Of a stretch of DNA of 64,000 nt, positions 2-33,738 are shown in pieces. The DNA comes from Desulfitobacterium dehalogenans ATCC 51507 (GTDB lineage: Bacteria > Bacillota > Desulfitobacteriia > Desulfitobacteriales > Desulfitobacteriaceae): positions 558,001 to 622,000 of the forward strand of contig NC_018017.1 in NCBI RefSeq assembly GCF_000243155.2, written 5' to 3'. Made by a program: the position numbers and the translations under genes. The notes beneath the pieces were generated by a model. The model did not search any database, was not told the DNA's origin, and worked only from the letters and a program-made list of their open reading frames with translations. Every line of letters begins with the position of its first letter. Position 1 is the stretch's first letter.

Positions 2-1918
2 GGAACGGCGGTTCTAATGCGATATACGTTAAGATTGCTTACTTCTCAGCAATTTGCACGGGCGAGCACCCTAATATGTGCCTGTGACTTAATTAGAAAA
101 GAGTTTTGGAATAATAGTAGGCGGCGTGATAAACGATGGAAAGAGCCGATTTCCATCGGCTTGTGGATTGGAGGAGATCACACGCCGAATAAAAATACGT
201 CTCACGATTATCCTCTAGGAGCCAAAGAACACCTCAGAGATTTACAAAACAAAAGCAAAGGGTCCATAGAGTATAGAAATGACTATTTTAATAAGTTCCA
301 AGTACTTACATGCCCTTGGTGCGGTGCAAGTTTAGTTCCCTCCGAAAAAGCAAGCGATCATGGCAAAGAAAAATGGGGATATGAAATGTACGATAAAAGA
401 CATTTTTATTTGCACTGCATTCGTCCACAATGTCCATTTGAAAACAATTTACCAGTACAGGTGGTGGATCAAGAACTATATCGTAATCCTCCGACATTAT
501 TATTTGCAACGGTCGATAAGTTTGCTATGTTGGCGTGGAATGGAGAGGTAGGTAAATTTTTTAGCATTTATTCAAATAATCGAGCCCCGGAGTTAATAAT
601 TCAGGACGAATTGCATTTAATATCGGGTCCATTGGGATCAATCGTAGGTCTATATGAAGCCGCAATTGACTCATTGTGTTCGTCAAAAGGGATTCGTCCT
701 AAAATCGTCGCTTCGACCGCCACAATACGACGTGCCGGCGATCAATGCAGACAGCTTTATAATCGTCCAGTCCTTCAATTTCCCCCGTCCGGTATCGATG
801 CGGCCGATTCTTTCTTTGCCAAAGAAGCTGACGTTGCCGAGCAGCCGGGACGTATGTATGTGGGGATTTTCCCATCTGGGAAAACAAAAGCAATGTTGCA
901 AACCAAGGTTATGTCGACTTTACTGCAATATGTGTCCATGCTTGATGCCGACGATATGGTTAAGGATCAGTATTGGACCCTTACGGGTTATTTCAACAGT
1001 TTACGAGACTTAGGTAAATGTTCGGGACTTGTCGACGATGACATCAAAGATTTCATGAAAAGACTCTGCCGTAGAATAGCGACGGATCGACTCATTCGCA
1101 AAATATCGATGGCGGAGGAACTAACGAGTCGCGTACCGACGACAGCTCTCGTAAAACGCCTAAAAAAACTGGAAAAGACAACCTATTTAAAAGAAAAGCA
1201 AGCCTCAAATAATTTTGCGATCAACGTATTGTTGGCAACTAATATGATCTCCGTCGGAGTGGATGTGGATCGTTTGAATCTAATGACGGTCGTCGGCCAA
1301 CCGAAGTTGACAAGCGAGTATATTCAGGCAACGAGTCGAGTCGGTCGCAAAAATCCCGGCCTGGTTTGTGTTTTGTATGACGGGACCAAAAGTCGCGATC
1401 GTTCTCACTATGAGCAATTCCACGCCTACCATGAATCCTTTTATAGATATGTGGAGCCTACCAGCGTAACGCCGTTTTCAAAGCCTTCTCTCGATAGAGC
1501 GCTACATGCGGTATTGGTTGGAATCATAAGAAACTGTGATCGTAGATTGCTTGGGGATGGAGATGCCAAAAATTTCACAGGTGATTATCCATTCTTGGAA
1601 ACGGTTAAGCAAGAACTACTTAGACGTATAGAGTCTGTATATGCTCACATAAGTCCCGAGGAACGAGCGGATATAAGCGTGGTTTCCGCTCGGGTAGAAA
1701 GTTTTTTTGAGGAATGGACTCAGTTAGCCAAAGACATTCCGGTTACGGATAAGTTCTATTACGGACTTAGTTTCATGCGAAAATTACCCGGGTCAGACGA
1801 GCATAGATTGTTGCGCCCGTTCGGCATGTGGGAAGAGGAACAGTCGTATGCAACGTTGACTTCCATGAGAAACGTCGATCAAAGTTTATCCGCTCGAATG
1901 CTGATATGGGAGGAATAA
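2..1918 (+). CDS. drmA: DISARM-type helicase DrmA, 3' part (partial)
   Basis: The reading frame is open from the window edge, so the first ATG at 17 is internal and the N-terminal Walker A region lies outside. About 639 residues are visible. A Walker B-like DELH sits near base 610, an ASTATIRR segment (helicase motif III type) near base 705, and QATSRVGRK (motif VI type) near base 1325. This layout fits the large DISARM helicase DrmA, which works with the DUF1998 protein DrmB to block incoming phage DNA. The next gene is a DUF1998 protein two bases downstream, and a C5 methyltransferase follows it. The family assignment rests on this gene order and the motifs; another DUF1998-linked helicase is the alternative. 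Confidence 0.8.
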   Translation, partial: GTAVLMRYTLRLLTSQQFARASTLICACDLIRKEFWNNSRRRDKRWKEPISIGLWIGGDHTPNKNTSHDYPLGAKEHLRDLQNKSKGSIEYRNDYFNKFQVLTCPWCGASLVPSEKASDHGKEKWGYEMYDKRHFYLHCIRPQCPFENNLPVQVVDQELYRNPPTLLFATVDKFAMLAWNGEVGKFFSIYSNNRAPELIIQDELHLISGPLGSIVGLYEAAIDSLCSSKGIRPKIVASTATIRRAGDQCRQLYNRPVLQFPPSGIDAADSFFAKEADVAEQPGRMYVGIFPSGKTKAMLQTKVMSTLLQYVSMLDADDMVKDQYWTLTGYFNSLRDLGKCSGLVDDDIKDFMKRLCRRIATDRLIRKISMAEELTSRVPTTALVKRLKKLEKTTYLKEKQASNNFAINVLLATNMISVGVDVDRLNLMTVVGQPKLTSEYIQATSRVGRKNPGLVCVLYDGTKSRDRSHYEQFHAYHESFYRYVEPTSVTPFSKPSLDRALHAVLVGIIRNCDRRLLGDGDAKNFTGDYPFLETVKQELLRRIESVYAHISPEERADISVVSARVESFFEEWTQLAKDIPVTDKFYYGLSFMRKLPGSDEHRLLRPFGMWEEEQSYATLTSMRNVDQSLSARMLIWEE

Positions 1919-1920
1919 TA

Positions 1921-3897
1921 GTGGTAAACGAACCGAAAAAAGTGAAATTGGGGAAAGGAAAGGTGACTCACAACGTCCGGGCCGCTCAAGCCATACTTCA
2001 ATACGGCGTCGGGGCAATGGTCGATTTCCCAGACCAAACGCTTATGACGGCCGCTCCCGAGTATTGGAGTGAAAATGATAATGAACTTAGACGCATTCGC
2101 GAGGAACTCAGACTTATTCGCGACGAGCGCTTGGAACGTCAACTAGGCGTGGATTATTTCGCGATTCCTCACGATAAAAGTCACCCTAATGAGCAAGGAA
2201 TCGCCTATACGCGGTTCCCCCGCTGGTACTTTTGTCCCAAATGCAGAAGGTTGGAGCCGCTATCATTTTGGTTAAAGGAATATAGACAAAAAGGCGGAAC
2301 TCGCGCGGAAGAAAAGCCGGATATGGAAAAGCCTGTGTGCCTCGGCGAAGCGTGTAGAGGACCCCGCGGCAAAGGGATAAACCTTGTTCCGGCCCGTATT
2401 GTCGTAGCCTGCGACGCCGGTCATATAGACGATTTTCCTTGGATTGAGTGGGTACACGCCGTTGCGAAAAAAGACGTTTGCGGGGATCCGCACCTTAAGT
2501 TCAAGACCGGCGTCAACTCTTCGGCGGGTTTGGAGGGATTGACGGTAAGCTGCGAAAACGAAAATTGTAAGGCTAAAGCGACCCTTGAACATTCGTTTGA
2601 TAAAAACGGTTTGCGTAGAATTCCGGGTTACGATTGCCATGGGCGCATGCCTTGGCGTAACGAGCGGGAAAGCTGTGGGCGGATTCCGCAAGCAAAGCAG
2701 CGCGGCGCTTCCGTCGTTTACTATCCCAAAGTGGACAGTTCGCTAGTGATTCCGCCGTATTCCGATCGTCTTCGTACAAAAATAATCAGCTCTGCGGAAT
2801 ATATAGATTTCTTATCAAAAGTTAAAGATAACGATAAGTATAATCCGGGAACCCGAGAGGTTTTTATCAACACCAGATTAAACGATTGGGTGAGTGAGCT
2901 TTCCTCTTCCGTTCATATTGAAGCCGAAATAATCGGACCGATATTAATAACGTTATTAACGCAGTTCGATACCGAAGGCGAAAACGACGCGTCCTCGGAG
3001 GTTTATCGGCAGGCGGAATATAGCGCTCTTAACGGCTCGATGCTTCAAACGTCCGTCGATGACGATTTTGAAAGAGAAGAGCGAAACGGTGACGAATACA
3101 ACATCCGGGGTGTCTCGCAGGTAGCTTTACTCCATAAAATCAGAGAGGTACGCGCTCTTGTAGGGTTCACGCGCCTTGATCCGGCAAGCACCGGGTCTTT
3201 AGGTATGCCGCCTCAAGACGCGGGACGATTTCAATGCGTAAAGAAGCCGGATACGCGATGGTATCCCGGATACGAAGTGCGCGGCGAAGGGATTTTTATT
3301 CAATTTGATAATGACTTCATAGTAAATTGGCTTGCGACCAATGATCATGTTGAAAGTCAAATAACCAAGTTGCGGAAAAACGCCGCGTTAAACGAACGTT
3401 TATCCGGAATGAAAATCGACCCTAAATTTATCTTTTTACACACTCTGTCTCACCTACTTATACAACGGTTAAGCTTTGAGAGCGGTTACAACAGCGCGTC
3501 GTTACGGGAACGCATATACTGCGACCTTGATCATCCCGAGTTTCCGATGTGCGGCATCTTTATCTATACGGCCTGCGGCGATTCCGAGGGAACGCTCGGA
3601 GGCTTGGTACGGCAGGGCTTGCCCGGCCGGCTGCGAAAGGTATTTGCGTCCGCGTTAGAAAGCGCGCGTTGGTGTTCCAACGATCCGGTTTGCGGAGAAA
3701 GTGGAGGTCAAGGTAGAAACGCTATGAACTTAGCCGCTTGTCATGCTTGTGCGTTGCTTCCGGAGACCAGCTGTGAAGAATTTAACGTCCTTCTTGATCG
3801 AACGCTCTTGATCGGCCGCATTACCGATCGAAACGTTGGGTTTTTCTCTTCATGGTTGGACGGAATAAGCAAGGAGGAGTCCCCTAATGCCTTATAA
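1921..3897 (+). CDS. drmB: DUF1998 protein DrmB of a DISARM-type system
   Basis: About 658 residues from a GTG start. I chose 1921 because GGGAGG at 1908-1913 lies seven bases upstream and drmA stops at 1918; an ATG at 1906 is also in frame. The N-terminal third has paired cysteines (FCPKC near base 2230, then a C-x4-C) and a later C-x4-C, suggesting zinc binding. The C-terminal part has HTLSHLLIQRLS near base 3440, typical of the DUF1998 (MrfB-like) region. In DISARM this protein partners the helicase DrmA. It overlaps the next gene by 11 bases, so the two are translationally coupled. Confidence 0.8.
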   Translation: MVNEPKKVKLGKGKVTHNVRAAQAILQYGVGAMVDFPDQTLMTAAPEYWSENDNELRRIREELRLIRDERLERQLGVDYFAIPHDKSHPNEQGIAYTRFPRWYFCPKCRRLEPLSFWLKEYRQKGGTRAEEKPDMEKPVCLGEACRGPRGKGINLVPARIVVACDAGHIDDFPWIEWVHAVAKKDVCGDPHLKFKTGVNSSAGLEGLTVSCENENCKAKATLEHSFDKNGLRRIPGYDCHGRMPWRNERESCGRIPQAKQRGASVVYYPKVDSSLVIPPYSDRLRTKIISSAEYIDFLSKVKDNDKYNPGTREVFINTRLNDWVSELSSSVHIEAEIIGPILITLLTQFDTEGENDASSEVYRQAEYSALNGSMLQTSVDDDFEREERNGDEYNIRGVSQVALLHKIREVRALVGFTRLDPASTGSLGMPPQDAGRFQCVKKPDTRWYPGYEVRGEGIFIQFDNDFIVNWLATNDHVESQITKLRKNAALNERLSGMKIDPKFIFLHTLSHLLIQRLSFESGYNSASLRERIYCDLDHPEFPMCGIFIYTACGDSEGTLGGLVRQGLPGRLRKVFASALESARWCSNDPVCGESGGQGRNAMNLAACHACALLPETSCEEFNVLLDRTLLIGRITDRNVGFFSSWLDGISKEESPNAL

Positions 3898-4912
3898 TGC
3901 AATCGATCTGTTCTGCGGATGCGGCGGTGTTACCCAAGGTCTTAAGGATGCGGGTTTCAATGTACTGGCCGGTGTGGAGAAGAGCTCGGCCCCGGCTTTC
4001 GTCTATAGGGCAAATCACCCTGAAGTACGGCTTTTCGAGCGCGATATCACGGAATTATCGCTAGACGAGGTGGCGGCAGCCTGCGACGGACAAGTAATCC
4101 ATCTGCTTGCCGGTTGTCCGCCGTGTCAGGGTTTTTCCTCAATACGTCGCCATAATCGTCGTCAACCTATAGACGACCCACGGAACACGCTGGTAAGTGA
4201 ATATTTTAAATATGTGGAGAGGTTTAATCCGCATGTTTTTATATTTGAAAACGTGCCGGCGATTGAAAGTTATCCTTTATTTGTTGAAATACGCAATCGC
4301 TTAGCCGCTTTAAACTATGAATTGGATTATCGAGTGGTAAACGTAGCCAATTACGGCGTTCCCCAGAGACGGAAACGATTTGTAATGATTGGCTCAAAAA
4401 TCGGACGTATTCCGATTCCCGCAGGCGACGATCGTATTACGACCGTCAGAGATGTTATTGGGAATCTTGAGACCCCCGAAGAAAGCGACGATTATGCGCA
4501 GACAATCGTTGCGCATCATATTCCTCGCATATTGGAGATGATTAGACTTGTGCCGCACGACGGCGGCAGTCGGACCGATTTGCCGGACGAGTATATATTG
4601 CAATGCCACAGAAGAGAAGGCATTGGTTTTAGAGACGTATATGGACGATTGCGCTGGGACGACGTTTCGTCGACAATTACCGGCGGATGTTTAAATCCGT
4701 CAAAGGGACGTTTTTTACACCCTGAACAAGATCGTGCGATTTCAGCGCGAGAAGCCTCGATGTTACAGACGTTCCCTCGGGATTATATATTTCCCCCGGG
4801 AGTATCAAAAACGGACATCGCTTTAATGATTGGTAACGCGTTACCCCCGCAATTTGCCTATCGACAAGCGGATTATATATTTACCAAATTGGAACGAGGC
4901 GGAATAACTTGA
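3887..4912 (+). CDS. DNA cytosine-5 methyltransferase (DrmMII-like)
   Basis: This 341-residue protein has the ordered C5-methylase motifs: DLFCGCGGVTQG (motif I, SAM binding) at the N terminus, GCPPCQGFS with the catalytic cysteine (motif IV), ENVPA (motif VI), and YGVPQRRKR (motif VIII), with GNALPPQFA (motif X) at the C terminus. It would mark host DNA so that the DISARM proteins spare it. It overlaps drmB upstream and the vsr-like gene downstream, making one operon. The target sequence cannot be read from the protein. Class 2 DISARM uses a C5 methylase, which supports the assignment. Confidence 0.88.
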   Translation: MPYNAIDLFCGCGGVTQGLKDAGFNVLAGVEKSSAPAFVYRANHPEVRLFERDITELSLDEVAAACDGQVIHLLAGCPPCQGFSSIRRHNRRQPIDDPRNTLVSEYFKYVERFNPHVFIFENVPAIESYPLFVEIRNRLAALNYELDYRVVNVANYGVPQRRKRFVMIGSKIGRIPIPAGDDRITTVRDVIGNLETPEESDDYAQTIVAHHIPRILEMIRLVPHDGGSRTDLPDEYILQCHRREGIGFRDVYGRLRWDDVSSTITGGCLNPSKGRFLHPEQDRAISAREASMLQTFPRDYIFPPGVSKTDIALMIGNALPPQFAYRQADYIFTKLERGGIT

Positions 4913-5334
4913 GCGATATATTTGACCGAGATAAGCGTTCCGAGATTATGAGCCATGTGAAGAGTTCAAATAATGCGTCCACGGAGGAAAAACTTATCGC
5001 TTTGTTTCGTATTTACGGCATCAAAGGTTGGCGACGTAAATACAAGGTATACGGGAAACCCGACTTCGTTTTTCATCATGAAAAGGTTGCCGTTTTCGTA
5101 GACGGTTGTTTTTGGCATGGTCACGATTGTCGGAACACTCGACCTAAGCAAAACGAAGAATTTTGGCGGCGTAAAATATCGCGAAATATGGAGCGCGATG
5201 AAACCGTAACAAAGCATCTTGAAAAACTAGGGTGGACGGTTCTTCGCATTTGGGAGTGCGAGTTAAAGAAGAAAAACATTGTGAAACTCCTTAGCCGACT
5301 CGAATCTGCAGGTTTGCATCGGGTCCAAACTTGA
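4909..5334 (+). CDS. vsr: Very-short-patch-repair (Vsr) type endonuclease
   Basis: This 141-residue protein matches the Vsr family in length and motifs: IMSHVKSSNNASTE at the N terminus, PDFVF with the catalytic-type aspartate, VFVDGCFWHGHDC with the zinc-site residues, and LGWTVLRIWECEL near the C terminus. Vsr nicks beside T:G mismatches made by deamination of 5-methylcytosine and so repairs damage caused by a C5 methylase. The start is a TTG that overlaps the TGA stop of the methyltransferase, so the two are coupled. The nick site should match the recognition sequence of the upstream enzyme. Confidence 0.9.
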   Translation: MSDIFDRDKRSEIMSHVKSSNNASTEEKLIALFRIYGIKGWRRKYKVYGKPDFVFHHEKVAVFVDGCFWHGHDCRNTRPKQNEEFWRRKISRNMERDETVTKHLEKLGWTVLRIWECELKKKNIVKLLSRLESAGLHRVQT

Positions 5335-5528: not shown

Positions 5529-6824
5529 ATGGAGATCGGAAAAATATATCGCTATTCTAGCCAGGCATTAAAAAAGGACCCGTCTCTTCCCGTTGTCGAC
5601 GGACTCCCAAATTATTTCTACTATACTAACGATCCAAAATCAATGACACAACTAATATTTCAGCGAGGTATTCACTCGATACAAGAGGTGGCTGGATCGG
5701 ATGGTCTAGTTCGCCGGCCGGCTATTATTATTTCAAGTAGCCCCCATAAGGTAGGAACCGAACAAACGCCATGGGAGGACTCCTATGATTCCGACTATGG
5801 TTACGTTTGTTATTATGGCGACAATAAATCAAATACTATGAGACCGGAAGAGACGGCGGGGAATAAACTATTACTTGAAGCGTTTAAACTCCATTCTTCA
5901 CCAAAAGAAGAGGATCGCAGATTAGCGACGCCAATCATTTTCTTTAACCGCGTGCCATTTGATGGACGTTCCAAAGGAAATCTATTGTTCCAAGGATTTG
6001 GCATAGTTGAAAGAGCGGAACTTGTAACGCAATATGATTCAAACGGAAATTATTTTACGAACTACGTATTTGATTTGTGTGTCTTTTCTTTACAGAAAGA
6101 AAATGAGGACTTTTCATGGCAATGGATAAATGCGCGAAGAGATAAGGATTTGGGATTTGGCGAGACATTGAAATTGGCGCCTGAATCGTGGAGAAAATGG
6201 ATAAAAAGGGGATCGCGTCATCTCCACGAAGTGAGAAGAAAAGTTTCGGCTCTGTCAATTGTTAAAACTCATGATCAGCAACCGAGTGCAGGTACAAAAG
6301 AAGAAAAGATCCTTACCCAAATTTACAATTATTATCAATCTTCGCGTCATAGTTTCGAGTTATTAGCTTTACGAGTAACGGAATACATTTTTGAAGAGTC
6401 GGGTTCAGAATTGACGCATGGATGGGTTACTCAAAAATCGTCGGACGGAGGAGTTGACTTTGTAACGAGACTCGATATTGGGCAAGGGCTTGCCGGTACA
6501 AAATTGGTTGTTCTTGGACAAGCAAAATGTGAAACGCCTAATAAACCTACAAATGGCCAAAATATCGCAAGAACAGTCGCACGTTTAAAGCGAGGTTGGA
6601 TCGGCGTCTATGTGACAACGTCTTATTTTTCAGCCAGTGTGCAGCAGGAAGTTATCGACGATCAATATCCGATAATCCTTGTGAACGGACTAAAAGTAGC
6701 GGAGACAGTGGGAAAAATACTATATGCGGAGGGTATGATACTCCAAAATTATTTAAAGGAGTTGGACGACCAGTATGATGTGCTTGTTAAAGCTAGACGT
6801 CCGGACGAAATTTTGACCATCTGA
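5529..6824 (+). CDS. Mrr-like restriction endonuclease with unknown N-terminal domain
   Basis: The C-terminal third of this 431-residue protein looks like an Mrr-type PD-(D/E)xK nuclease. After a helix (SFELLALRVTEYIF) comes GGVDFVTR with the metal-binding Asp, then VVLGQAKCE with the Q-x-K pair, then a Rossmann-like end (IILVNGLKVAE). Residues 1 to about 240 are not a family I recognise firmly. They contain GFGIVERAEL and a Trp-rich stretch, and may recognise DNA, possibly modified bases, as in other Mrr-fused enzymes. The gene stands alone with GGAAAGG as its ribosome site. A modification-dependent restriction enzyme is the likely role by inference. Confidence 0.7.
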   Translation: MEIGKIYRYSSQALKKDPSLPVVDGLPNYFYYTNDPKSMTQLIFQRGIHSIQEVAGSDGLVRRPAIIISSSPHKVGTEQTPWEDSYDSDYGYVCYYGDNKSNTMRPEETAGNKLLLEAFKLHSSPKEEDRRLATPIIFFNRVPFDGRSKGNLLFQGFGIVERAELVTQYDSNGNYFTNYVFDLCVFSLQKENEDFSWQWINARRDKDLGFGETLKLAPESWRKWIKRGSRHLHEVRRKVSALSIVKTHDQQPSAGTKEEKILTQIYNYYQSSRHSFELLALRVTEYIFEESGSELTHGWVTQKSSDGGVDFVTRLDIGQGLAGTKLVVLGQAKCETPNKPTNGQNIARTVARLKRGWIGVYVTTSYFSASVQQEVIDDQYPIILVNGLKVAETVGKILYAEGMILQNYLKELDDQYDVLVKARRPDEILTI

Positions 6825-7081: not shown

Positions 7082-9076
7082 ATGAATCAGCCTCAGATTT
7101 GCAAGATTCATATTAAGAATTACCGGAACTTTTCATCGGTTGGTTTTGATTTAAGCGATAGGCAAGTTATTATCGGTGAAAATAACGTCGGCAAGAGCAA
7201 TTTATTACGCGCTATGCAATTGATTCTTGACCCCAGTCTTTCGGATGAAGATAGGCGGCTTGAGGAGTCTGATTTCTTTGACGGGCTTGAAGCTCCTATG
7301 GAAAACAACCAAGAAATATTAATCGAATTGTACATAGATAATTATTTCCACATAAAAAACGTACTTTGCCAATTAAGTGACGCAACTGTCGATTTAGATG
7401 GTCGTAAAGTATTAAAACTCTCCTATAAATTTTTCCCGCAAGAAGATGCGTCTGGTAAAGTTAATTATACTTATATAATTTACAAAGGAGACGATGAAAC
7501 TAATTTTTTTACGCATGGAGATAGGAAATATTTGAATATGCGAGTAATCAAAGCGATACGCGATGTAGAAGCCGAAATGCGAAACTCCAGAACATCGCCT
7601 TTAACACGCATAATCAAGCAGAAATATGATATCAGAAAAGAAGATCTCATTGAGATTTCTGAAGCATTAAAATCGTCCGGAGCAAACATGCTTAACCTTC
7701 CGGAGATTAACGACCTCCAAACAAAGATCAGTAAGCTCTTTAACTCTATAATTTCATATTCAGAAGATGAATTTGGCATTTCGTTGCGGACAATGGATAT
7801 TGACGCGTCTCGACTGCTTTACGCTCTGCGCCCATTAATCGACAAAAGAGAGTCCGGAAATACAAGTTTAGGTATAAATAATGTTTTGTACATTACCCTT
7901 ACTCTTTTGCTGATCCAGGATGATACGATTAAAACTTACTTATCTCCGACTCTTTACAAAAAGTTGACGGAACAAGACGGGGACGAGATTGTGCAAAGGT
8001 ATTATCGAGGTGACGATCAGACCGGCTACCATTTAACCTACGATTTAAAAGATGTGGACTCGCAACTTTATGATTTTTTATATGAGCATAATTCAAATAC
8101 AAACGGAGTTACAATTCTGGCCATTGAAGAACCCGAGGCTCACCTTCATCCAATTTTTCAACGATTGCTCTATAAATATGTCGTGCTAGAAGCAAATGCC
8201 TCATTGATTATTACAACACATTCAACGCATATCTCGTCCGTGGCTCCCATCAAATCCATCATTCACTTAGTGGGAAATAAGTCTGGCACAGAAGTCTATA
8301 CAGCGGCAAACTTAAACTCTCCGGATAAGGAAATTTCCGATTTAGAAAGATATATTGACGTAAAAAGAGGCGAAATATATTTAGCTAAAGGCATCATCTT
8401 TGTAGAAGGAATTGCTGAAGAATATCTCGTACCTAGTTTTGCAAAACGCCTGGGGTGTGACCTTGACCGCTTAGGCGTGATTGTATGTAACATAAATTCA
8501 ACTAACTTCTGGCCGTACAAACAGTTTGCCGACTTGCTAGGCATACCTAACGTAATTATAACGGACGGAGACTATTATCATACTGTCAATGGAGAGAAGA
8601 TATTTGGAGATTTATCGGACGAAAGCCATGCAAATTTTGGGTATTTCGGAAATGAACGAATGGAAGAGTTATATGAATTATTTATAGATGAAGATGAATT
8701 TGCACGGTTTGCGGAGCTTGATATTACCCAACAAGATGAAAAATTGAATAAACATGGGATTTTTGTCGGCTTCTATACGTTTGAAACAGATATATTAAAT
8801 AAAATTGGTAAAGAGTCAGATAGAGCAATAATTTGTTCTGTTTTTAATGAATTAACAGAGGGTGGGCAACAACAAAAAGATAATTTTAAAGCTAATCTGG
8901 TTTCAAAGAACTACAAAAAATGCCTTGCTCAAATAGAATCTTCACATAGTAATGTGGGCAAAGGGCGATTCTCGCAAAGATTAGCTTCCATTTGTACAAG
9001 AACGATGGTTCCAGACTACGTTAAGGACGCCATTGAATATATTTGTATGGAAGTCCGAGGCGAACTTGATGAATGA
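7082..9076 (+). CDS. gajA: Gabija-type OLD-like ATPase/TOPRIM nuclease GajA
   Basis: This 664-residue protein has an ABC/SMC-like ATPase domain first: Walker A GENNVGKS at residues 32-39, a Walker B segment (VTILAIEEPEAHLH) near residue 345, and an ITTHSTH His-switch near residue 378. A TOPRIM domain follows, with GIIFVEGIAEEY near residue 440 holding the key Glu, and ITDGD near residue 493. OLD-family nuclease plus a downstream UvrD-like helicase is the Gabija anti-phage arrangement, where GajA nicks DNA when nucleotide pools fall. It is somewhat longer than the roughly 580 residues of the studied GajA. The downstream gene overlaps by 8 bases. Confidence 0.83.
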   Translation: MNQPQICKIHIKNYRNFSSVGFDLSDRQVIIGENNVGKSNLLRAMQLILDPSLSDEDRRLEESDFFDGLEAPMENNQEILIELYIDNYFHIKNVLCQLSDATVDLDGRKVLKLSYKFFPQEDASGKVNYTYIIYKGDDETNFFTHGDRKYLNMRVIKAIRDVEAEMRNSRTSPLTRIIKQKYDIRKEDLIEISEALKSSGANMLNLPEINDLQTKISKLFNSIISYSEDEFGISLRTMDIDASRLLYALRPLIDKRESGNTSLGINNVLYITLTLLLIQDDTIKTYLSPTLYKKLTEQDGDEIVQRYYRGDDQTGYHLTYDLKDVDSQLYDFLYEHNSNTNGVTILAIEEPEAHLHPIFQRLLYKYVVLEANASLIITTHSTHISSVAPIKSIIHLVGNKSGTEVYTAANLNSPDKEISDLERYIDVKRGEIYLAKGIIFVEGIAEEYLVPSFAKRLGCDLDRLGVIVCNINSTNFWPYKQFADLLGIPNVIITDGDYYHTVNGEKIFGDLSDESHANFGYFGNERMEELYELFIDEDEFARFAELDITQQDEKLNKHGIFVGFYTFETDILNKIGKESDRAIICSVFNELTEGGQQQKDNFKANLVSKNYKKCLAQIESSHSNVGKGRFSQRLASICTRTMVPDYVKDAIEYICMEVRGELDE

Positions 9077-10883
9077 GTACTTTAAAATCAAACTTTCTCA
9101 AATTAGCGATGATGAAAAACAAATTGAAGCGTATAATTCCACAGGTAACACCGTTGTTATTGCTGGTCCAGGCAGTGGAAAAACCACGGTCTTGACGCTG
9201 AAAGTTATGCGTCTGTTAAGCGAAGTCATTACCCCTCCAAGAGGATTAGCCTGTCTTACCTTTAGCCGTGAAGCCTCCCGTGAATTCCAGGAACGTTTGA
9301 AATTACTGGGACTCCAAAGACGTGGTAATGTATTTTTGGGAACCGTTCATAGCTTTTGTTTATCGGAAGTATTGATGCCTTTTGCAAAACTATATCCTAA
9401 TTATGGAATACCTTATCCGATTAAAATTATTTCCGATTCGAAAAGAAAACGGCTGTTTCAGCGTATAAAAAAACAAATACCTGATGAGTTAACTATTGAA
9501 GAGATGGATAAAGAGCGAACTCGTGACATTAGTGGGTTCAGTAAGGTGTCTATACCTAGTTATGACGTTGCTTTGCGGGTTGCCGTAGCATTTGAGAGAG
9601 AACTGTTCAGCCGTGGTTATATTGATTATATTAGTATGGTAAAAATCGCGACCATGCTTATCCAAAATGAAGCTTATGTGCAACAAGCGCTAGAAGCAAA
9701 ATTTCCATGGCTTGTTATTGACGAATATCAGGATTTGGGAAAGCCATTGCATGAAATGGTTTTATCACTTTTGCAAAGTACAAATATCAAGATTTTTGCT
9801 GTTGGCGATGCAGATCAATCAATATATGATTTTCAAGGGGCTTCGCCAGAATATCTCGTTGAATTATCCGAATGGAAATCTATTAATCAATGTATTCGGT
9901 TAATGAACAATTACCGCAGTGCCAAAGGTATTATCGAAGCATCGGAGACTGTTTTGAATATTAAACGCAATTACAAAGCACGCGGTGCACTTAAAGATTA
10001 CCCGGCGAACATTGAATTTTTTGTATGCGAAGAAGGGATGGACGAACAATATCAGGTTGCAACTAGTATTATTGAAGACTGTATTGCAGAAGGTATACCG
10101 TTTCATGAGATTGCTATTCTAGCCGGCTACAATAATCAATTAAAAGATTTAGGAAAGCTCTGTCAGAGTAAGGGAATTCCTTATTACTTAGCCAAGCAAG
10201 ATTTCATCAGAAGCGATTTTATAAAATGGATGGAAAACTGCGCTGCATGGGTGTCATCTTCTCGTAAAGTCTTATTTGATGATATCTTTGAATATTGGGA
10301 CTTCTTGTTAATGCAGCACAGGCAATCAATTGATTATGATAACGGGATTCTAGCCAAGCGGAACCTCTATACCATTCTGGATAAAAGCCGCCACTATGCG
10401 AATACGCTTGTACAGTGGTTTGATTTTGTTCTTGATTCGCTGCAAATAGAGACTTTATTGCACGATTCGGAAATATATCCGGATGAAATCGAAAATCTAA
10501 AGAAACTTAATGAGCTGCTAAGCGATGAACTTTATACGGATTTTTCGTTAGGCCAGTTCACTAATCTTGGGCTTCCAGAGAACCAAGTTGTTTTATCTAC
10601 AAGACATGGAGCTAAAGGTTTGGAATTTGATATTGTTATTATGCTCGGCATGGAAGAAGGGAGCTTTCCATATTACAAAAACACCTCTCAGCGAGAAATT
10701 GATGAAGCTCATAGACTTTGCTTTGTTTCTGTGAGTCGAGCAAGAAAAAAGTGTATACTAGTACGTTCAAAGACTTTAATTATACCGAAAAAGGATGGCA
10801 CTTGGTGGAATAAACCATGTGAACCATCTAGGTTCTGGAATATGTTATACAGCCGCCATTCCCAAATAAATGGCTACTCATAA
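9069..10883 (+). CDS. gajB: Gabija-type UvrD-like helicase GajB
   Basis: About 604 residues from the ATG at 9069, chosen because it overlaps the GajA stop. An in-frame ATG at 9033 lies inside gajA. Superfamily 1 motifs are in order: AGPGSGKTT (I), LTFSREASREF (Ia), DEYQDL (II), GDADQSIYDFQGA (III), NYRS (IV) and HGAKGLEFD (V). The Gabija partner GajB senses DNA ends and activates the GajA complex. The protein is longer than the roughly 490-residue reference, so this may be a diverged Gabija subtype. The two genes are clearly one operon. Confidence 0.83.
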   Translation: MNEYFKIKLSQISDDEKQIEAYNSTGNTVVIAGPGSGKTTVLTLKVMRLLSEVITPPRGLACLTFSREASREFQERLKLLGLQRRGNVFLGTVHSFCLSEVLMPFAKLYPNYGIPYPIKIISDSKRKRLFQRIKKQIPDELTIEEMDKERTRDISGFSKVSIPSYDVALRVAVAFERELFSRGYIDYISMVKIATMLIQNEAYVQQALEAKFPWLVIDEYQDLGKPLHEMVLSLLQSTNIKIFAVGDADQSIYDFQGASPEYLVELSEWKSINQCIRLMNNYRSAKGIIEASETVLNIKRNYKARGALKDYPANIEFFVCEEGMDEQYQVATSIIEDCIAEGIPFHEIAILAGYNNQLKDLGKLCQSKGIPYYLAKQDFIRSDFIKWMENCAAWVSSSRKVLFDDIFEYWDFLLMQHRQSIDYDNGILAKRNLYTILDKSRHYANTLVQWFDFVLDSLQIETLLHDSEIYPDEIENLKKLNELLSDELYTDFSLGQFTNLGLPENQVVLSTRHGAKGLEFDIVIMLGMEEGSFPYYKNTSQREIDEAHRLCFVSVSRARKKCILVRSKTLIIPKKDGTWWNKPCEPSRFWNMLYSRHSQINGYS

Positions 10884-11421
10884 TTTTGTTCAAATTCAAT
10901 AAATACAATTTACTATAACTGATATCGTATGAAGCATTTAGTAGTCTCATTGAAAAAATAGTTGCGAGCACTCTCGACACTATCCATTTTCCTATCATGG
11001 TTTGCGAAACAAACAGTTATCCCTTCTTGAGGATTCTAATGGAATAGGGCTGATTAACAACAAAGTACCCCGCCCTCTCCGAACCGTACGATAGGGTTTA
11101 TTCTATACCCAATTGGAGAGAAAATGCCAAATAGATGTTCGGTGAATTGAACTCCAATCAGTAATGTCCGCTATCTTACCCATGATATCCTTCGCTGTAG
11201 TAGCTATAATAAATTCTTGATAACAGACTTGAAATACAGTGACAGTCAATGGTTTTTAAAGAAATTGAACAATGCTTCGATATTTGATAAGATAGCACTA
11301 TGAGACATTAGCTTCCTCCTTGGATGGAGTTGTTGTGGCCACTTATAAATCAAATTCACCATAAACATAACTTGGTATTGTAAAAGATAGGTTTGAAAAA
11401 ATATATTAAGGATGATTTTAT
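10884..11421. other. Intergenic DNA with mobile-element relics
   Basis: No intact gene is visible in this 538-base gap. On the minus strand an AAGGAGGAAG ribosome site (11312-11321) precedes an ATG at 11308 that opens only 20 codons before a stop at 11246, and coding-like residues continue past the stop; this resembles a decayed transposase start. Around 11070-11100 the minus strand reads GTACGGTTCGGAGAGGGC, which resembles the conserved sequence after group II intron reverse transcriptase genes. Both readings are tentative. The gap separates Gabija from the restriction-modification unit and may mark a join in the island. Confidence 0.35.
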
Positions 11422-12507
11422 ATGGCTCAAGTTGATTATCAAGAAGCGAAAAGAATACTTCTTTCACTATATCATCGAGTATCTGACAGCATTAGTGATG
11501 ATGTTGAAAAGGCATTAGAGGAAAATAAAGAAAACCTTGATGCATTATTTAATTCAAATACTCAATCATACCGAGAAGCGCTGTTAGGTTGCGCATTAAT
11601 ACACTTAATAGATTCAAGTGTAAATATACGGCTTCCATATATAAAGCACGGAGAGGGTTCGTTTAACGGCCGCTCTCTTGATGAATATAGTGTAAATCCT
11701 TTTCTCCAAGAGCAGCTATTCCCTTGCTCCAAAGGCCCTTACTTAGCAGCGTTTCGCCGAAGCGTAAAACTATTACCCGAGACGGCAGAAGGGCTTCGGG
11801 ATAAAGTGGGCTATGCTGCTATGTTAGATTTGCTAGATGTTGTAGAAAACTGTAACACAGAAGCAGATACGGAAAACTTTATTATGTGTTTGTTGCAAAG
11901 GTTTATTATACTGCGCAATGCTTCATATATACGTTTAGCTCGAACTGGAAGATTTAGCATAGAACAATATAGAAAATTGCTCCTTGACCTGGTAAGTCAT
12001 CAAAGTGGCGGTCTGTTTCCCGTTCTTATTACTATAGCATTTTTTCAAATGCTTTCAGAACAACATTCTTTGGATTGGGAAATAACATGGCAAGGAATAA
12101 ATGTCGCAGATAATGCAACTGGCGCAGAAGGTGACGTGACTATAAAGTCTAACGGAACTACTTTTTTAGCTATAGAGATAACAGAAAGGCCGCTCGACCA
12201 AAGACGAATTGTATCTACTTTTAATACAAAGATTATACTGAATGATGTCAAAGAATATCTGTTTATATATACTAATACAGAACCCGACGATACTGCGCAT
12301 CAAGCTGCAAAAACTCTATTTTCGCAAGGCTACGAAGTAAATTTTGCTAACATTGTTGAACTCATAATAAATAATTTTCTTGCGCTCCCATCAAATGCGA
12401 GGACAATTTTCTCTAGCAAGATGTTGGTTCTTTTAGATTCAAGAGAAGTACCGGCGGCTATTAAAGTAAAGTGGAATGATTCAATCAAAATGGTGTTAGC
12501 AATATAG
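11422..12507 (+). CDS. Probable type II restriction endonuclease
   Basis: This 361-residue protein is mostly alpha-helical at the N terminus. Near residue 235 it carries AEGDVTIKSNGTTFLAIEIT, which resembles the PD-(D/E)xK nuclease core (D-V, about ten residues, then E-x-T/K), although the usual final Lys appears as Thr. It converges on a C5 methyltransferase across a shared terminator, the usual pairing for a restriction-modification system. It may belong to the SacI-type family, a weak recollection that I could not check. A non-nuclease role is possible given the unusual catalytic triad. Confidence 0.6.
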   Translation: MAQVDYQEAKRILLSLYHRVSDSISDDVEKALEENKENLDALFNSNTQSYREALLGCALIHLIDSSVNIRLPYIKHGEGSFNGRSLDEYSVNPFLQEQLFPCSKGPYLAAFRRSVKLLPETAEGLRDKVGYAAMLDLLDVVENCNTEADTENFIMCLLQRFIILRNASYIRLARTGRFSIEQYRKLLLDLVSHQSGGLFPVLITIAFFQMLSEQHSLDWEITWQGINVADNATGAEGDVTIKSNGTTFLAIEITERPLDQRRIVSTFNTKIILNDVKEYLFIYTNTEPDDTAHQAAKTLFSQGYEVNFANIVELIINNFLALPSNARTIFSSKMLVLLDSREVPAAIKVKWNDSIKMVLAI

Positions 12508-12512
12508 AAAAG

Positions 12513-12546
12513 GAGAGCGGTCTACTCATAGTCCGCTCTCTTTTTT
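12513..12546. terminator. Bidirectional terminator between convergent R-M genes
   Basis: GAGAGCGG pairs with CCGCTCTC across a short loop. A run of six T follows on the plus strand, and the minus-strand side also ends in T after AAAAGG. It serves both the putative nuclease and the methyltransferase. Confidence 0.85.
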
Positions 12547-13624
12547 AGGCATATACACGAGCCTTTGTCAAATACGCTTCATTATAGATAGATATTATTG
12601 CTTCTGCAATCGCAAATGCAAGATTGCAGGGAACTGCATTCCCAATCTGGCGATAAATCGAGGATTTTTCTCCTACAAATTGATAGGTGGGAGGAAATGT
12701 TTGTATGGCAGCCGCCTCAACAGTTGTAATTCGACGAATATGGGAGGGCACTATCCTGCTAACCTTCTTGTTAGCTTGGGCAAGTTCGGTATGATACTGT
12801 ACAACCCAATTTTCAGCTTCCGGATCTTCTAGCAACAACTCATCAAGAATCGGTGTTTTATTCCCTCCCATTGAGGCGGGCAAAGTGTTAGCCTGACTGC
12901 TTATATCCAATGGACGTCCCATCCCATTAAATAACATACCGGCATATGGCGATTTTCTCATAACAGGATTAGCCGCTAATGAGATTTTAGCAGTGCATGT
13001 TATCGGGTTGCCTTCTGTGCCGGCCGGAGGAAGCTTCCTTAAACAATCGCGCACTGTAACTCGTGGTTTAATCAACTTTATAATTTCTGTTTCGAATATT
13101 TTTTCTACGTCTGCATCAGTGTCAAGAAAACCAATGAAAAATACACGTTCTCTTTTTTGTGGCACTCCAAAATCAGCAGCATTAAGGACTTTATAAAAAC
13201 AAGTGTATCCCATGTCATGTGCCCTGCTAACTATTTTTTCTCGAACAGATTGCCAACGCTGCAATTTACCAAGTGCTTTTACATTTTCCATGACAAAAAT
13301 TTTGGGTTTTAGTATATTTACAACATCCATGTACTCCCATATAAGCTTGCTGCGCTCATCATCCGGGTCCATTTTTCCAGCAACAGAGAAACCCTGACAG
13401 GGAGGTCCACCAAATACTAAATCAATGCTACCTTCATCAAATTGTTGGAGTTCCTCTTTGAGTCTCTTAATATCTCCCTGCCGCAACATTGTATCAGGAT
13501 TATTTTTTATATAGGTTTGCGCAGCGTCTAAATCCAATTCATTGGCCCAGACAATAGACACTCCGGCATCTGAAAATCCGACATCCATTCCGCCGGCACC
13601 TGCAAATAATGATACTGCTCTCAT
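12545..13624 (-). CDS. DNA cytosine-5 methyltransferase (R-M modification enzyme)
   Basis: This 359-residue C5 methylase shows SLFAGAGGMDVGF (motif I), GGPPCQGFS with the catalytic Cys (motif IV), MENVKAL (motif VI), FGVPQKRER (motif VIII) and IGNAVPCNLA (motif X). It is distinct from the DISARM-linked methylase at 3887. It is the last gene of a minus-strand run behind the XRE/ImmA protein (17 bases apart) and the 244-residue protein, and it converges on the putative nuclease. Placing the methylase behind a repressor-like gene suggests its expression is controlled by that protein. Confidence 0.9.
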   Translation of the reverse strand: MRAVSLFAGAGGMDVGFSDAGVSIVWANELDLDAAQTYIKNNPDTMLRQGDIKRLKEELQQFDEGSIDLVFGGPPCQGFSVAGKMDPDDERSKLIWEYMDVVNILKPKIFVMENVKALGKLQRWQSVREKIVSRAHDMGYTCFYKVLNAADFGVPQKRERVFFIGFLDTDADVEKIFETEIIKLIKPRVTVRDCLRKLPPAGTEGNPITCTAKISLAANPVMRKSPYAGMLFNGMGRPLDISSQANTLPASMGGNKTPILDELLLEDPEAENWVVQYHTELAQANKKVSRIVPSHIRRITTVEAAAIQTFPPTYQFVGEKSSIYRQIGNAVPCNLAFAIAEAIISIYNEAYLTKARVYA

Positions 13625-13641
13625 TAACTCTCACCACCATC

Positions 13642-14802
13642 CTAACTAAGATTCATGCGCGGAACCAAAGTTATTATTTTTCCTTCTAAATTTTCATCGG
13701 GTTCGTCTGGCAAGGTGTCGGGTTCTAAACAAAGAACTTCATCAATAACATCTTTAGGCAGAGACGTTTTATACTTTGCAAATAATTGAAACATTTGCTT
13801 CGGTGTGAGGTAATCGTTTAGAATCAACATATTAATTGCTTGTTTTAATGCCTTGGGACCTTTGACAGCCATGTAATCATCCAAAGGCTCTTGGCTACGC
13901 CAATCATTACGCGACATTTGACGCATTAGATACTGATATTGATTTGAACTAATAACCTCTAAATCAAACGCCCGAATAATCATTGCAGAAATTGACACTT
14001 TCCATTTCCGTTTCAGTTCGATGTAATAGTTTAGTTTATTAGCATATGGCTGAACATCACGTATAAAGGCTTCTTTAGGTAATAAGAAGGCGGAAGCAAA
14101 TTTGTTTGCTTCATCTTCTCGCTTCCGAAACTCTACTCTATCCAGTTCGTCTATATCGTTATTTCTTTCATGTAGCAATATATGAGCCAATTCATGGGCG
14201 GCACTAAACTGACGGCGGGTAAATGTCAACTTATCAGTGCCTAATACGACACAGTAGTATTCTTGTCCGAAAACTTCACCATACTGATAAAAAGCATCAA
14301 TAGTTTTTCCTTCGGTCGAGAACTCTGATACGATAACACCGTTCCGCTCTAAAAGTGCAACCATATCGGAAATAGGCTCTCTACCTAATCCCCAAAAATC
14401 TCTGGCTTGATTTGCGATTTGTTCAATGTTATCAATATCATCAAAGCGCGGCAAATTAAGCGGCGGAAAATCAACATATTCAGATAGACAACTCTGAATA
14501 TAGGCCACATATCTTGCCTTGATGCGTTGTGAGTTTAAATCCTTTTTATTGCTAGAAAAGGGGGCGCGAAAGTATGTGTTTCCCACAAGAATGTTGCTGT
14601 CACTATCCTCAATAAAAAAGCGAATAGGGAAATTTAAAACGCTACTAATAGATCTTAATGTATCGAATTCGGGAGAATTCTTCCCATTTTCAAATTGTGA
14701 AATGGCTTGTTTTTTTACTCCAACATTGTTGGCCAATTCTTCAATTGTCATTTTCCTGTACAACCGCGCTTCATTAAGGCGCGATGGATTGAAGTTATCC
14801 AT
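13642..14802 (-). CDS. XRE-family HTH protein with ImmA/IrrE metallopeptidase domain
   Basis: About 386 residues. An N-terminal helix-turn-helix (TIEELANNVGVKKQAISQFENGK, residues about 15-40) is followed by an ImmA/IrrE domain with the zinc motif HELAHILLHER near residue 210. Such proteins cleave or relieve repressors under stress. I took the ATG at 14802 because GAGGTAGAG lies seven bases upstream; a TTG at 14808 is also in frame. It sits between an unknown protein and the methylase, so it may regulate the restriction-modification unit. The amber stop of the upstream gene lies in the same frame as this one. Confidence 0.85.
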   Translation of the reverse strand: MDNFNPSRLNEARLYRKMTIEELANNVGVKKQAISQFENGKNSPEFDTLRSISSVLNFPIRFFIEDSDSNILVGNTYFRAPFSSNKKDLNSQRIKARYVAYIQSCLSEYVDFPPLNLPRFDDIDNIEQIANQARDFWGLGREPISDMVALLERNGVIVSEFSTEGKTIDAFYQYGEVFGQEYYCVVLGTDKLTFTRRQFSAAHELAHILLHERNNDIDELDRVEFRKREDEANKFASAFLLPKEAFIRDVQPYANKLNYYIELKRKWKVSISAMIIRAFDLEVISSNQYQYLMRQMSRNDWRSQEPLDDYMAVKGPKALKQAINMLILNDYLTPKQMFQLFAKYKTSLPKDVIDEVLCLEPDTLPDEPDENLEGKIITLVPRMNLS

Positions 14803-14820
14803 AATCAACTCTACCTCATA

Positions 14821-15555
14821 CTATATGTTTGCGGTTTCTGGCTTTTCAGAAATTGAGACCAAATCTTCGGAAGGAGTTTCTTTTTGACCTTTCATGCGAA
14901 CCAGAGGTTCATTATCATCATCTCTCATATCTTCAACGATAGAAGTCTTGCCAATTATATATGGGCTATTTAGGAGATGACTCCAATCTTCGGAATATGC
15001 GATACCCAGCTCAGGGGTTAGCAATACTGCTCTTGCGGATATTACAAGGGAATCATCGTAGTCGAACAAAATTAATATATGATTTTTGATAATGCCGGCA
15101 AATTCGCTTAGCAATTCTTCTCGGAGTTTATTGATTGCATCACTGTCACGAGAAGTTTGCTCAAATTCAAGTGAAAGTTGTCCTTCAACAATATCATATC
15201 CCGTATTAGAGGCAATAAGGGATTCCAGATAATGAGTTCCCTCTGGTAAGCGTTTTTGTAATTTGCTGAGATTTTTTTCTGTCATAATAGAAAAAGTAAT
15301 TCCATTATTACGCTCGAAGAGAAGCAGGAATTTCCAAGGGCCGCGCTTAGCATAGCTAAGTTGGAATCTCCCCCCTAGATTTTCGGAAATATTTTTATTG
15401 ATAAAATTCCATCTGAATAAACCCACACCATTTGAAGTCGGAAGATTATAATCCTGAACAAGTTCAGGAATATCGCTTGTGACAGCGGTGAAAATGCCAT
15501 TTGCTATCGCATGGCGAGCATCGTCTTCCATGTTAAGAGAAGTAAAAGTTGCCAT
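14821..15555 (-). CDS. Unknown 244-residue protein at head of R-M operon
   Basis: I do not recognise this protein with confidence; a DUF5986-like family is a weak guess. It has no signal peptide or membrane span and has an acidic, disordered-looking tail. Aromatic and basic patches (RGPWKFLLLFER) lie near residue 85, and an LILFDYDDSLVISARAVLL strand region near residue 170. It is the first gene of a three-gene minus-strand operon with the XRE/ImmA protein and a C5 methylase, with a GGGAGGGAACG ribosome site. It ends in TAG, and the frame stays open into the XRE/ImmA gene. A sensor or antitoxin-like role is possible. Confidence 0.7.
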   Translation of the reverse strand: MATFTSLNMEDDARHAIANGIFTAVTSDIPELVQDYNLPTSNGVGLFRWNFINKNISENLGGRFQLSYAKRGPWKFLLLFERNNGITFSIMTEKNLSKLQKRLPEGTHYLESLIASNTGYDIVEGQLSLEFEQTSRDSDAINKLREELLSEFAGIIKNHILILFDYDDSLVISARAVLLTPELGIAYSEDWSHLLNSPYIIGKTSIVEDMRDDDNEPLVRMKGQKETPSEDLVSISEKPETANI

Positions 15556-16332
15556 AGAACGTTCCCTCCCAATATTTACATGTTCTAATTTTTACATATT
15601 AAACACTAAAAGTCAAGCGTGTTTTTGAAATTGATTAAATATATCAAGTGGAGTATTCCCCAAGGGTTTAGCATACTAGAGTGATATACCTTTTATATGA
15701 GCATTACGGGGAAAGAATATTTATTATTATCTAATGCGAAAACTTGTTTGTAAAGTTGGAAATTAACAGGCCTGAACATCCACCCCAAATTCCCCCTCCC
15801 CCACACCTTGCATTTCCCCCCAAAAAAGCTATAATTAACACTAGGTGGAAATTAAAAAGTCGCCGTGACCTAAGAGTGTTGCAGCACCCTCAGGCACGAG
15901 CAGGTGAACCAGCACCTACACGTAACAGTCCAGCTGTCCACGACGACATCCTTATTATACAATGCCGCCCCTTTCCGCACAAGCAAAGCGCTTGTGCCGC
16001 GGGTGAAGTAACTGTAATAAGGTAAGGTGTCGGCAGGGAACAGAGCAGACTGTGCGGCTTCACGCAGCAGGAGATTCAGCCTATTCCTGACCCAGGCAGC
16101 GGAAAGGAATTGTTCGCATACCGGTTTGCGGACCGCTTTTCTGTTCACAGCCGGTTTGTTTCCGATTGATTGGGGTTAGGTGTTAGGATTCAGCAGATAA
16201 CGAAGCATAGCACATGTGTAGGGTGAAAAAAACCTCGCATGTGCTTTTTAATTTCCCCTATCAAAGCAGACGGCAGGACCGGGTCAAGGCCCGGAGCCTT
16301 GCCGCTGCTTGAAATAGGGGGTAGAGACTGGA
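15556..16332. other. Non-coding gap at island edge
   Basis: This 777-base stretch has no gene I can support. It starts AT-rich (the promoter region of the minus-strand operon), then holds C-rich sequence near 15780-15830, a possible terminator at 16208-16248 (AGCACATG with CATGTGCT then T5), and a long hairpin at 16255-16320 listed separately. It is likely the boundary between the defence island and older chromosome. I found no attachment-site repeat by eye. Confidence 0.4.
16255..16320. repeat. Long imperfect hairpin
   Basis: The arms CCCCTATCAAAGCAG and CTGCTTGAAATAGGGG enclose a second pairing of CGGCAGGACCGGG with CCCGGAGCCTTGCCG. Together they form a 66-base stem-loop just upstream of a 55-codon gene. 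No T-run follows, so it is not a simple terminator. Confidence 0.7.
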
Positions 16333-18160: not shown

Positions 18161-18622
18161 ATGCACTTAATTTTCAAACTAAATTCCACCCCTTCACTTG
18201 GGAAAGTAGAATTTAGTTTGGAGAAATTAAAGGATGGAATTTACGCAGAGATGAACGACTGGATAAGAACCAATCGGCATCTGCCAGTCAGAACGATGAT
18301 CGCAGAAACCAATGCAAAACTGCGTGGCCACTACCAATACTATGGTATTACGGATAACAGCAAGAGCATCAAAACCTACTATTACCGGGCGCTCAAGGCG
18401 CTCTTCAAATGGCTCAATCGCAGAAGCCAGAAACGCAGCTACACATGGGAAGGGTTCAACAACTTGCTCAAAGTATTCCCTTTGATACAACCAAGAATTC
18501 GAGTAAGTATTTATGGTTAGCAAGACGCGAATCTTAAGATGAGGAGCCGTGTGTGTTTATCGCGCAAGCACGGATCTGTAAGGGCTCGGGCGTTGCGAGG
18601 CGCCCTTGCTACTCGACCAGTA
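18161..18622 (+). mobile_element. Group II intron remnant (maturase tail)
   Basis: Bases 18161-18520 encode the end of a group II intron reverse transcriptase: WIRTNRHLPVRTMIAETNAK, LRGHYQYYGITDNSKS and ALKALFKWLNRRSQK, which is maturase domain X. Just past the stop the DNA reads GAGCCGTGTGTGTTTATCGC then ACGGATCTGTAAGGGC and ends CTACTCGACC, as usual downstream of such genes. The catalytic YADD half and intron 5' end are missing, so the element is dead. Confidence 0.88.
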
Positions 18623-31833: not shown

Positions 31834-31905
31834 GGGGGGTGGATCGTATGGATCACACGGACTCTAAATTCGTGCAGGCGGGTGAAACTCCCGTACTCCC
31901 CGCCA
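31834..31905 (+). tRNA. pylT: Pyrrolysine tRNA (anticodon CUA)
   Basis: This 72-base gene folds as tRNA-Pyl. Acceptor GGGGGGT pairs with ACTCCCC. A four-pair D stem GATC/GATC has a tiny loop, and only one base separates acceptor and D stem. The six-pair anticodon stem CACGGA/TTCGTG holds loop CTCTAAA with CTA at 31864-31866. The variable loop is very short and the T arm is GCGGG/CTCCC-type. The discriminator is G and CCA is encoded. It differs from the D. hafniense tRNA I remember mainly in the D loop. It decodes the amber codon of mttB. Confidence 0.97.
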
Positions 31906-33680: not shown

Positions 33681-33738
33681 GTATTCTGCCATTGGATGCA
33701 TGAAGAATAACAAAATTATTAGGAGGGTGGGCTGAAAA

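What the first reader, a model, noticed from the sequence alone, without database searches (positions are those of the whole stretch)
11422..15555. Restriction-modification unit headed by an unknown protein and an XRE/ImmA protein
The methylase is the third gene of an operon starting with a 244-residue protein of unknown family and an XRE/ImmA-type protein, facing a putative nuclease whose active site has Thr where Lys is usual. The layout suggests regulated or stress-released restriction rather than a plain type II system.
Basis: partly seen in the sequence, partly recalled or inferred. Interest (0 to 1): 0.6.

Follow-up and report, generated by a model that had tools for sequence, protein, structure and literature searches.

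The report
Toxin-antitoxin pair joined to restriction system
The four genes are two known bacterial anti-virus modules lying side by side, a SacI-like restriction-modification pair and a RosmerTA toxin-antitoxin pair, and the toxin carries a conserved peptide that suggests it jams the DNA-replication clamp.

Summary
The four genes exist at the stated coordinates and order. The "unknown" 244-residue protein is not unknown: it is DUF5986/RmrT, the toxin of a RosmerTA toxin-antitoxin system, and the XRE/ImmA protein is its antitoxin RmrA. The 361-residue protein is a SacI/EcoT38I-family restriction endonuclease and the methylase is its convergent m5C partner. The modules are independent. RmrT-RmrA pairs stand without this R-M in 21 other loci, including a C. 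difficile phage. Relatives of the R-M stand without RmrTA, several with a small controller (C) gene instead. Only in this window does the methylase follow rmrA, 17 nt behind it, so co-expression with the TA operon is likely but not conserved. The Thr in the nuclease active site is real and shared by close relatives, so it is a lineage feature, not decay. New here: RmrT homologues share a near-invariant Gln in a sliding-clamp-binding-like motif (window QLSLEF, an exact consensus match). Since a Rosmer toxin of S. pneumoniae (RipA/Spr1630) binds DnaN, I propose that DUF5986 toxins poison the sliding clamp (about 50% likely). The locus sits in a large defence island (DISARM, a modification-dependent nuclease, Gabija). 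"Stress-released restriction" is not supported as a conserved system.

The parts
11422..12507 (+). R: SacI/EcoT38I-family type II restriction endonuclease (361 aa); candidate catalytic residues D238 (12133-12135), E252 (12175-12177) and T254 (12181-12183, Lys in EcoT38I)
   Evidence: family profile against EcoT38I 7e8r E 1.7e-6 over residues 23-317; single sequence E 0.0013; 43% identical to an Agrobacterium plasmid protein annotated SacI family that passes PF09566; alignment
12545..13624 (-). M: C5-cytosine DNA methyltransferase, convergent partner of R
   Evidence: PF00145 3.4e-76; 74% (L002), 55% (L028), 50-52% (L031-L033) relatives that lie beside nuclease genes
13642..14808 (-). RmrA: RosmerTA antitoxin, XRE HTH plus ImmA/IrrE (M78) metallopeptidase domain with HELAH zinc motif (H205-H209, 14182-14196)
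   Evidence: PADLOC RmrA 4.7e-162; HTH_3 and M78; HExxH invariant in 9 homologues
14821..15555 (-). RmrT: RosmerTA toxin, DUF5986
   Evidence: PF19448 3.4e-39; PADLOC RmrT 6.6e-59; found directly upstream of RmrA in all 22 loci examined
15163..15180 (-). QLSLEF (RmrT residues 126-131): clamp-binding-motif-like peptide with near-invariant Gln126
   Evidence: published consensus Q-phi-x-[L/M]-x-[F/L] (PMC13254535)
15588..15616 (-). sigma-70-like promoter upstream of rmrT (TTGACT-17-AAAAAT); similar TTGACA-type boxes precede rmrT in the other loci
   Evidence: consensus match only, number of such sites in the region is at chance level
15571..15600 (-). direct repeat AAYATGTAAAWATT, two copies 16 nt apart over the -10 region: candidate RmrA operator
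   Evidence: the only two exact copies in the window are here; role is inference
13625..13641 (-). 17-nt gap between rmrA stop and M start holding only a ribosome-binding site (ggtggtgag); no room for a promoter of M's own

Best explanation
Two independently mobile anti-phage modules lie side by side in a defence island. Module 1 is a type II R-M pair: a SacI/EcoT38I-family endonuclease (R) and a convergent m5C methyltransferase (M); R cuts unmethylated foreign DNA at a site M protects. Module 2 is a RosmerTA toxin-antitoxin system: toxin RmrT (DUF5986), then antitoxin RmrA (XRE + ImmA metallopeptidase), which represses and neutralises the toxin until phage infection or a replication disturbance disables it. 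M has come to lie directly behind rmrA, so in this genome it is probably transcribed from the RmrA-controlled TA promoter, standing where relatives have their own promoter facing a small C gene. Inferred: RmrT acts by docking its QLSLEF motif into the hydrophobic pocket of the DnaN sliding clamp and stalling replication, as reported for the Rosmer toxin RipA/Spr1630. Shown here: gene identities, order, pair conservation, independence of the modules, conservation of the motif. Inferred: co-transcription, RmrA regulation, clamp binding (about 0.5 on its own), cleavage specificity.
For: RmrT/RmrA identities. Toxin-first pair in all 22 loci, none of the 21 others with SacI-like R or with M behind rmrA. 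R is EcoT38I/SacI-like. R-M relatives without RmrTA, several with a C-type HTH gene. dN between window and L002 equal for R (0.185) and M (0.186) with saturated synonymous sites, so both genes are under purifying selection. Motif: near-invariant Q126 in a gap-rich stretch; published consensus met at the aligned column in 7/21 and with one-step relaxation in 14/21, against 2/185 and 6/185 for other Gln in the same proteins (p 1e-6 and 2e-12). RipA, a Rosmer toxin, binds DnaN and is suppressed by mutations in its hydrophobic pocket (PMC12795458).
Against: No wet-lab evidence for this locus. Rosmer toxins are diverse: the Gordonia phage Kita toxin depolarises membranes (PMC10440598). Homology between DUF5986 and Spr1630 could not be tested (sequence not held). 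The antitoxin matches the spr1629 NCBIfam model at 234 bits, below its equivalog cut-off of 335. One of 22 homologues lacks the Gln and a few have poor motifs. No usable structure model.
Confidence: 0.72

Rival explanations
1. One integrated four-gene system: RmrA, an ImmA-type sensor, controls M (and, through M, restriction), so phage stress that removes RmrA or M releases restriction and the toxin together.
For: rmrT-rmrA-M are co-directional with 12- and 17-nt gaps and no promoter space before M; the C gene seen in several R-M relatives is absent here.
Against: Not conserved: 0 of 21 other RmrTA loci carry M behind rmrA or an R, and R-M relatives lack RmrTA. Only one genome has the arrangement; the closest R-M relative (L002, 74%) ends inside M, and its incomplete MAG shows no RmrA, a weak negative.
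Confidence: 0.15
2. R is a catalytically dead or repurposed endonuclease because the active-site Lys is Thr, leaving M as an orphan regulator or decoy methylase.
For: T254 aligns with the Lys of EcoT38I; L004 of Nostoc also has Lys there.
Against: ExT is shared by window, L002, L003, L028 and L031, which come from phyla as far apart as Bacillota and Pseudomonadota and pair with two unrelated methyltransferase types; R evolves under purifying selection as strong as M.
Confidence: 0.12
3. RmrT (DUF5986) acts on a target other than the sliding clamp, for example the membrane or nucleic acids, and the Gln motif has a structural role or binds RmrA.
For: Other RmrT families depolarise membranes (PMC10440598); other residues (R71, W74, Y109, N117) are as conserved as Q126.
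Against: RmrT has no transmembrane-like stretch (best 19-residue hydropathy 1.35); the motif matches the clamp-binding consensus and lies in a stretch of variable length, as a docking peptide would.
Confidence: 0.4

Closest known systems
RosmerTA (RmrT/RmrA), anti-phage toxin-antitoxin systems (Millman et al. 2022; Kita phage RmrTA, PMC10440598)
   Same: XRE+ImmA/M78 antitoxin, toxin-first operon, PADLOC RmrT and RmrA models match
   Different: toxin is DUF5986, not the membrane-depolarising Kita D5 toxin; an m5C methylase follows in the same run
RipAB (Spr1630/Spr1629) of Streptococcus pneumoniae, PMC12795458
   Same: Rosmer-type pair with XRE-ImmA antitoxin; proposed same target (DnaN pocket)
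   Different: homology of the toxins not tested; antitoxin below the equivalog cut-off
EcoT38I restriction endonuclease (PDB 7e8r, 7edb) and its SacI-family relatives
   Same: nearly full-length profile match E 1.7e-6 with the D and E of the active site aligned
   Different: Thr replaces the ExK Lys; M is m5C and convergent, whereas the Agrobacterium and Nostoc relatives have Dam-like adenine methylases
C-protein-regulated type II R-M of Psychrobacter pA15BP2, Acinetobacter pAS6-4 and genome G250
   Same: same M family (about 50-55%) beside a SacI-like R in all three
   Different: small C-type regulator co-directional with R; window has no C gene and RmrTA upstream of M

Membership tests
RosmerTA | antitoxin with XRE HTH fused to ImmA/IrrE (M78) domain, HExxH | tested here: met
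RosmerTA | adjacent toxin of an RmrT family | tested here: met
   PADLOC RmrT 6.6e-59; pair conserved in 22 loci
RosmerTA | toxicity of RmrT neutralised by RmrA; anti-phage activity | not testable with these tools
   needs expression and phage assays
Spr1629/Spr1630 (RipAB) equivalog | antitoxin above NF052239 cut-off (335 bits) | tested here: not met
   234 bits, E 2.5e-69
Spr1629/Spr1630 (RipAB) equivalog | toxin homologous to Spr1630 | not tested
   Spr1630 sequence not available in the collections used
SacI family (PF09566 RE_SacI) | match to the Pfam model above cut-off | tested here: inconclusive
   window protein has no Pfam match; its 43% relative L003 passes (24.7 bits, cut-off 19.3)
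EcoT38I-like PD-(D/E)XK endonuclease | homology to EcoT38I | tested here: met
   profile E 1.7e-6, residues 23-317
EcoT38I-like PD-(D/E)XK endonuclease | Lys of the ExK motif | tested here: not met
   Thr254; shared by L002, L003, L028, L031
Type II R-M system | endonuclease gene with adjacent cognate methyltransferase | tested here: met
   R-M convergence conserved in L002 and L028
Type II R-M system | R cuts and M protects the same site | not testable with these tools
   needs methylome or cleavage assay
C-protein-controlled R-M | small C regulator gene beside R | tested here: not met
   no such ORF in 10884-11421; present in L028, L031, L032, L033
single conserved four-gene system | the four genes co-occur across genomes | tested here: not met

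The most novel reading that the evidence does not exclude
DUF5986 RmrT proteins form a family of phage-defence toxins that inhibit the bacterial sliding clamp through a conserved QL[S/T]LF-type docking motif; in this genome the methyltransferase of an R-M system has been captured into their operon, tying self-protection from restriction to the same antitoxin switch.
Probability: 0.4. Interest if true: 0.6.

Novelty: new member of a known kind. Interest (0 to 1): 0.4.

Why it matters
It gives a testable mechanism to a toxin family of unknown function: a conserved clamp-binding-like peptide links DUF5986 RosmerTA toxins to the replication clamp, the reported target of one Rosmer toxin. It also shows how defence islands can place a methylase under a toxin-antitoxin promoter without the genes being a dedicated system, a caution against reading function from one layout.

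Tried and rejected
AlphaFold2 models of R (two sequences; pLDDT 37) and RmrT (one sequence; pLDDT 33) are unusable. The structural re-ranking of the R model listed EcoT38I only at Z 2.9 and 2.5 among unrelated folds, so I give it no weight. Viral-contig scans with R, M and several RmrTs found nothing, and alignment queries were too diverse to scan with. No RmrA relative was found in the incomplete MAG that holds L002. The right-flank gene has only 30-35% relatives in the genus, so no empty site could be defined. PDB searches for the RmrT profile and for RmrA gave nothing. The promoter and terminator scans are at chance level and are used only as a guide.

Full report
Observation. In transcription order on the minus strand: 15555-14821 (244 aa), 14808-13642 (388 aa; an ATG at 14802 has a better-placed ribosome-binding site than the TTG) and 13624-12545 (359 aa). 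The 361-aa gene 11422-12507 faces them on the plus strand. Gaps of 12 and 17 nt leave no room for a separate promoter before the methylase.

Identity of the first two genes. The 244-aa protein is DUF5986 (PF19448, 3.4e-39) and matches PADLOC's RmrT (6.6e-59); the 388-aa protein is HTH_3 + Peptidase_M78 and matches PADLOC's RmrA at 4.7e-162. Together they are a RosmerTA toxin-antitoxin system. In RosmerTA, diverse RmrT toxins are paired with an ImmA-domain antitoxin and give phage defence (PMC10440598). The zinc motif HELAH and a following Glu (E231) are conserved in all nine RmrA homologues aligned, so the peptidase is probably intact. I found 21 other DUF5986-RmrA pairs, in Bacillota-type genomes of the window's phylum and in Clostridioides phage phiCD27. 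Every one is toxin first and antitoxin directly behind. Two further RmrA loci, L023 and L024, carry a different protein in the toxin position.

Identity of the R-M pair. A profile of the 361-aa family finds EcoT38I in the PDB at 1.7e-6 over nearly the whole length (single sequence 0.0013). The Agrobacterium relative (43%) is annotated as a SacI-family enzyme and passes PF09566. The alignment pairs D238 and E252 with acidic residues of EcoT38I, and T254 with its Lys. Thr stands there also in L002, L003, L028 and L031, which span Bacillota and Pseudomonadota and two methylase types; the Nostoc relative L004 has Lys. The Thr is therefore a lineage trait. R and M diverged equally from L002 (dN 0.185 and 0.186, synonymous sites saturated), which speaks against a decaying nuclease. 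M is a C5-cytosine methylase. Its 50-55% relatives on Psychrobacter and Acinetobacter plasmids and in genome G250 stand beside SacI-like R genes; a further ~50% relative on a Paracoccus plasmid stands beside a different, longer nuclease candidate.

Do the four genes travel together? No. In none of the 21 other RmrTA loci (4.8-20 kb examined each) is a SacI-like R found, and none has a methylase behind rmrA. Cytosine methylases lie 5' of rmrT within a few kb in three loci, L062, L063 and L072, and other restriction-type genes near two more, L013 and L021. This is what a defence-island neighbourhood gives. Conversely, R-M relatives lack RmrTA: L028 (G250) and the Psychrobacter, Acinetobacter and Paracoccus plasmids have a small HTH (C-type) gene instead, and the Agrobacterium, Nostoc and G374 relatives have Dam-like adenine methylases. 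L002, the closest relative (74%), has a vsr gene before R and ends inside M, so its upstream side is unknown.

Mechanism of the toxin. The RmrT alignment contains few near-invariant residues: N42, R71, W74, Y109, N117 and Q126. Q126 begins a short hydrophobic motif in a stretch of variable length: QLSLEF in the window; QLALF, QLSMF, QSSLF, QISLF, QLTLF, QMTLF and QLLLF in others. Published bacterial clamp-binding motifs are QL[S/D]LF, revised to Q-phi-x-[L/M]-[F/L] and Q-phi-x-[L/M]-x-[F/L] (PMC13254535). The window motif meets the latter exactly. Applied unchanged, this consensus is met at the aligned column in 7 of 21 proteins, against 2 of 185 other glutamines in the same proteins (p 1.3e-6) and 1.2% of glutamines in ORFs generally. 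Allowing Met at position 2, Phe at 4 and Met at 5 it is met in 14 of 21 against 6 of 185. The Rosmer toxin RipA (Spr1630) of S. pneumoniae binds DnaN, and all its suppressor mutations fall in the hydrophobic pocket where such motifs dock (PMC12795458). That paper's text holds no mention of a clamp-binding motif, and no paper in the held library mentions DUF5986. Clamp binding by DUF5986 is therefore a prediction: the sequences within the family are related, so the p-values overstate independence, and homology to RipA is untested.

Regulation. Each of the seven rmrT upstream regions inspected has a TTGAC-type -35 box close to the start codon. In the window a 14-nt direct repeat overlaps the -10 region and is a candidate RmrA operator. 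Since M follows rmrA directly, M is probably read from this promoter. If RmrA autorepresses, M level would rise when RmrA is lost, which would protect host DNA rather than release restriction. R has its own upstream region of 538 nt with no C gene.

Setting. The window's left end holds DISARM genes (DrmA, DrmB and a cytosine methylase), Vsr, an AspBHI-like modification-dependent endonuclease (PADLOC 1.7e-227) and Gabija GajA/GajB. The finding is one corner of a compact defence island.

Verdict. Confirmed anatomy, known kinds of modules, unconserved juxtaposition; the clamp-motif reading of DUF5986 is the part worth following.

Noticed in passing
window 2-5334: DISARM-type genes: DrmA (begins left of the window), DrmB, a second C5-cytosine methylase (3887-4912) and Vsr (4909-5334).
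   Followed up: partly
window 5529-6824: AspBHI/MspJI-like modification-dependent restriction enzyme (PADLOC mREase_II 1.7e-227) coexisting with two m5C methylases in one island; the host's own m5C marks must escape it, which limits the possible target sites of M.
   Followed up: no
window 7082-10883: Gabija system, GajA (3.4e-208) and GajB (1.7e-210).
   Followed up: no
window 31834-31905 and 33048-35211: tRNA-Pyl. The ORFs 33739-34728 and 34810-35211 look like two parts of a trimethylamine methyltransferase interrupted by an in-frame stop, next to a corrinoid-protein-like ORF; read by eye only.
   Followed up: no
window 18161-18617: Group II intron remnant: maturase-domain fragment (PF08388) and a sub-threshold RF00029 hit (29.6 bits).
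   Followed up: no
L003, L004, L029: SacI-family endonucleases paired with Dam-like adenine methylases instead of m5C enzymes: partner swap within one endonuclease family.
   Followed up: partly
L002 516-1019: A vsr mismatch-repair nuclease gene directly before the closest R homologue (PF03852 4.2e-29), consistent with an m5C-type system.
   Followed up: no
L041 3492-5429: Clostridioides phage phiCD27 orf71-orf72, deposited as hypothetical protein and putative DNA-binding protein, are a RosmerTA pair.
   Followed up: partly
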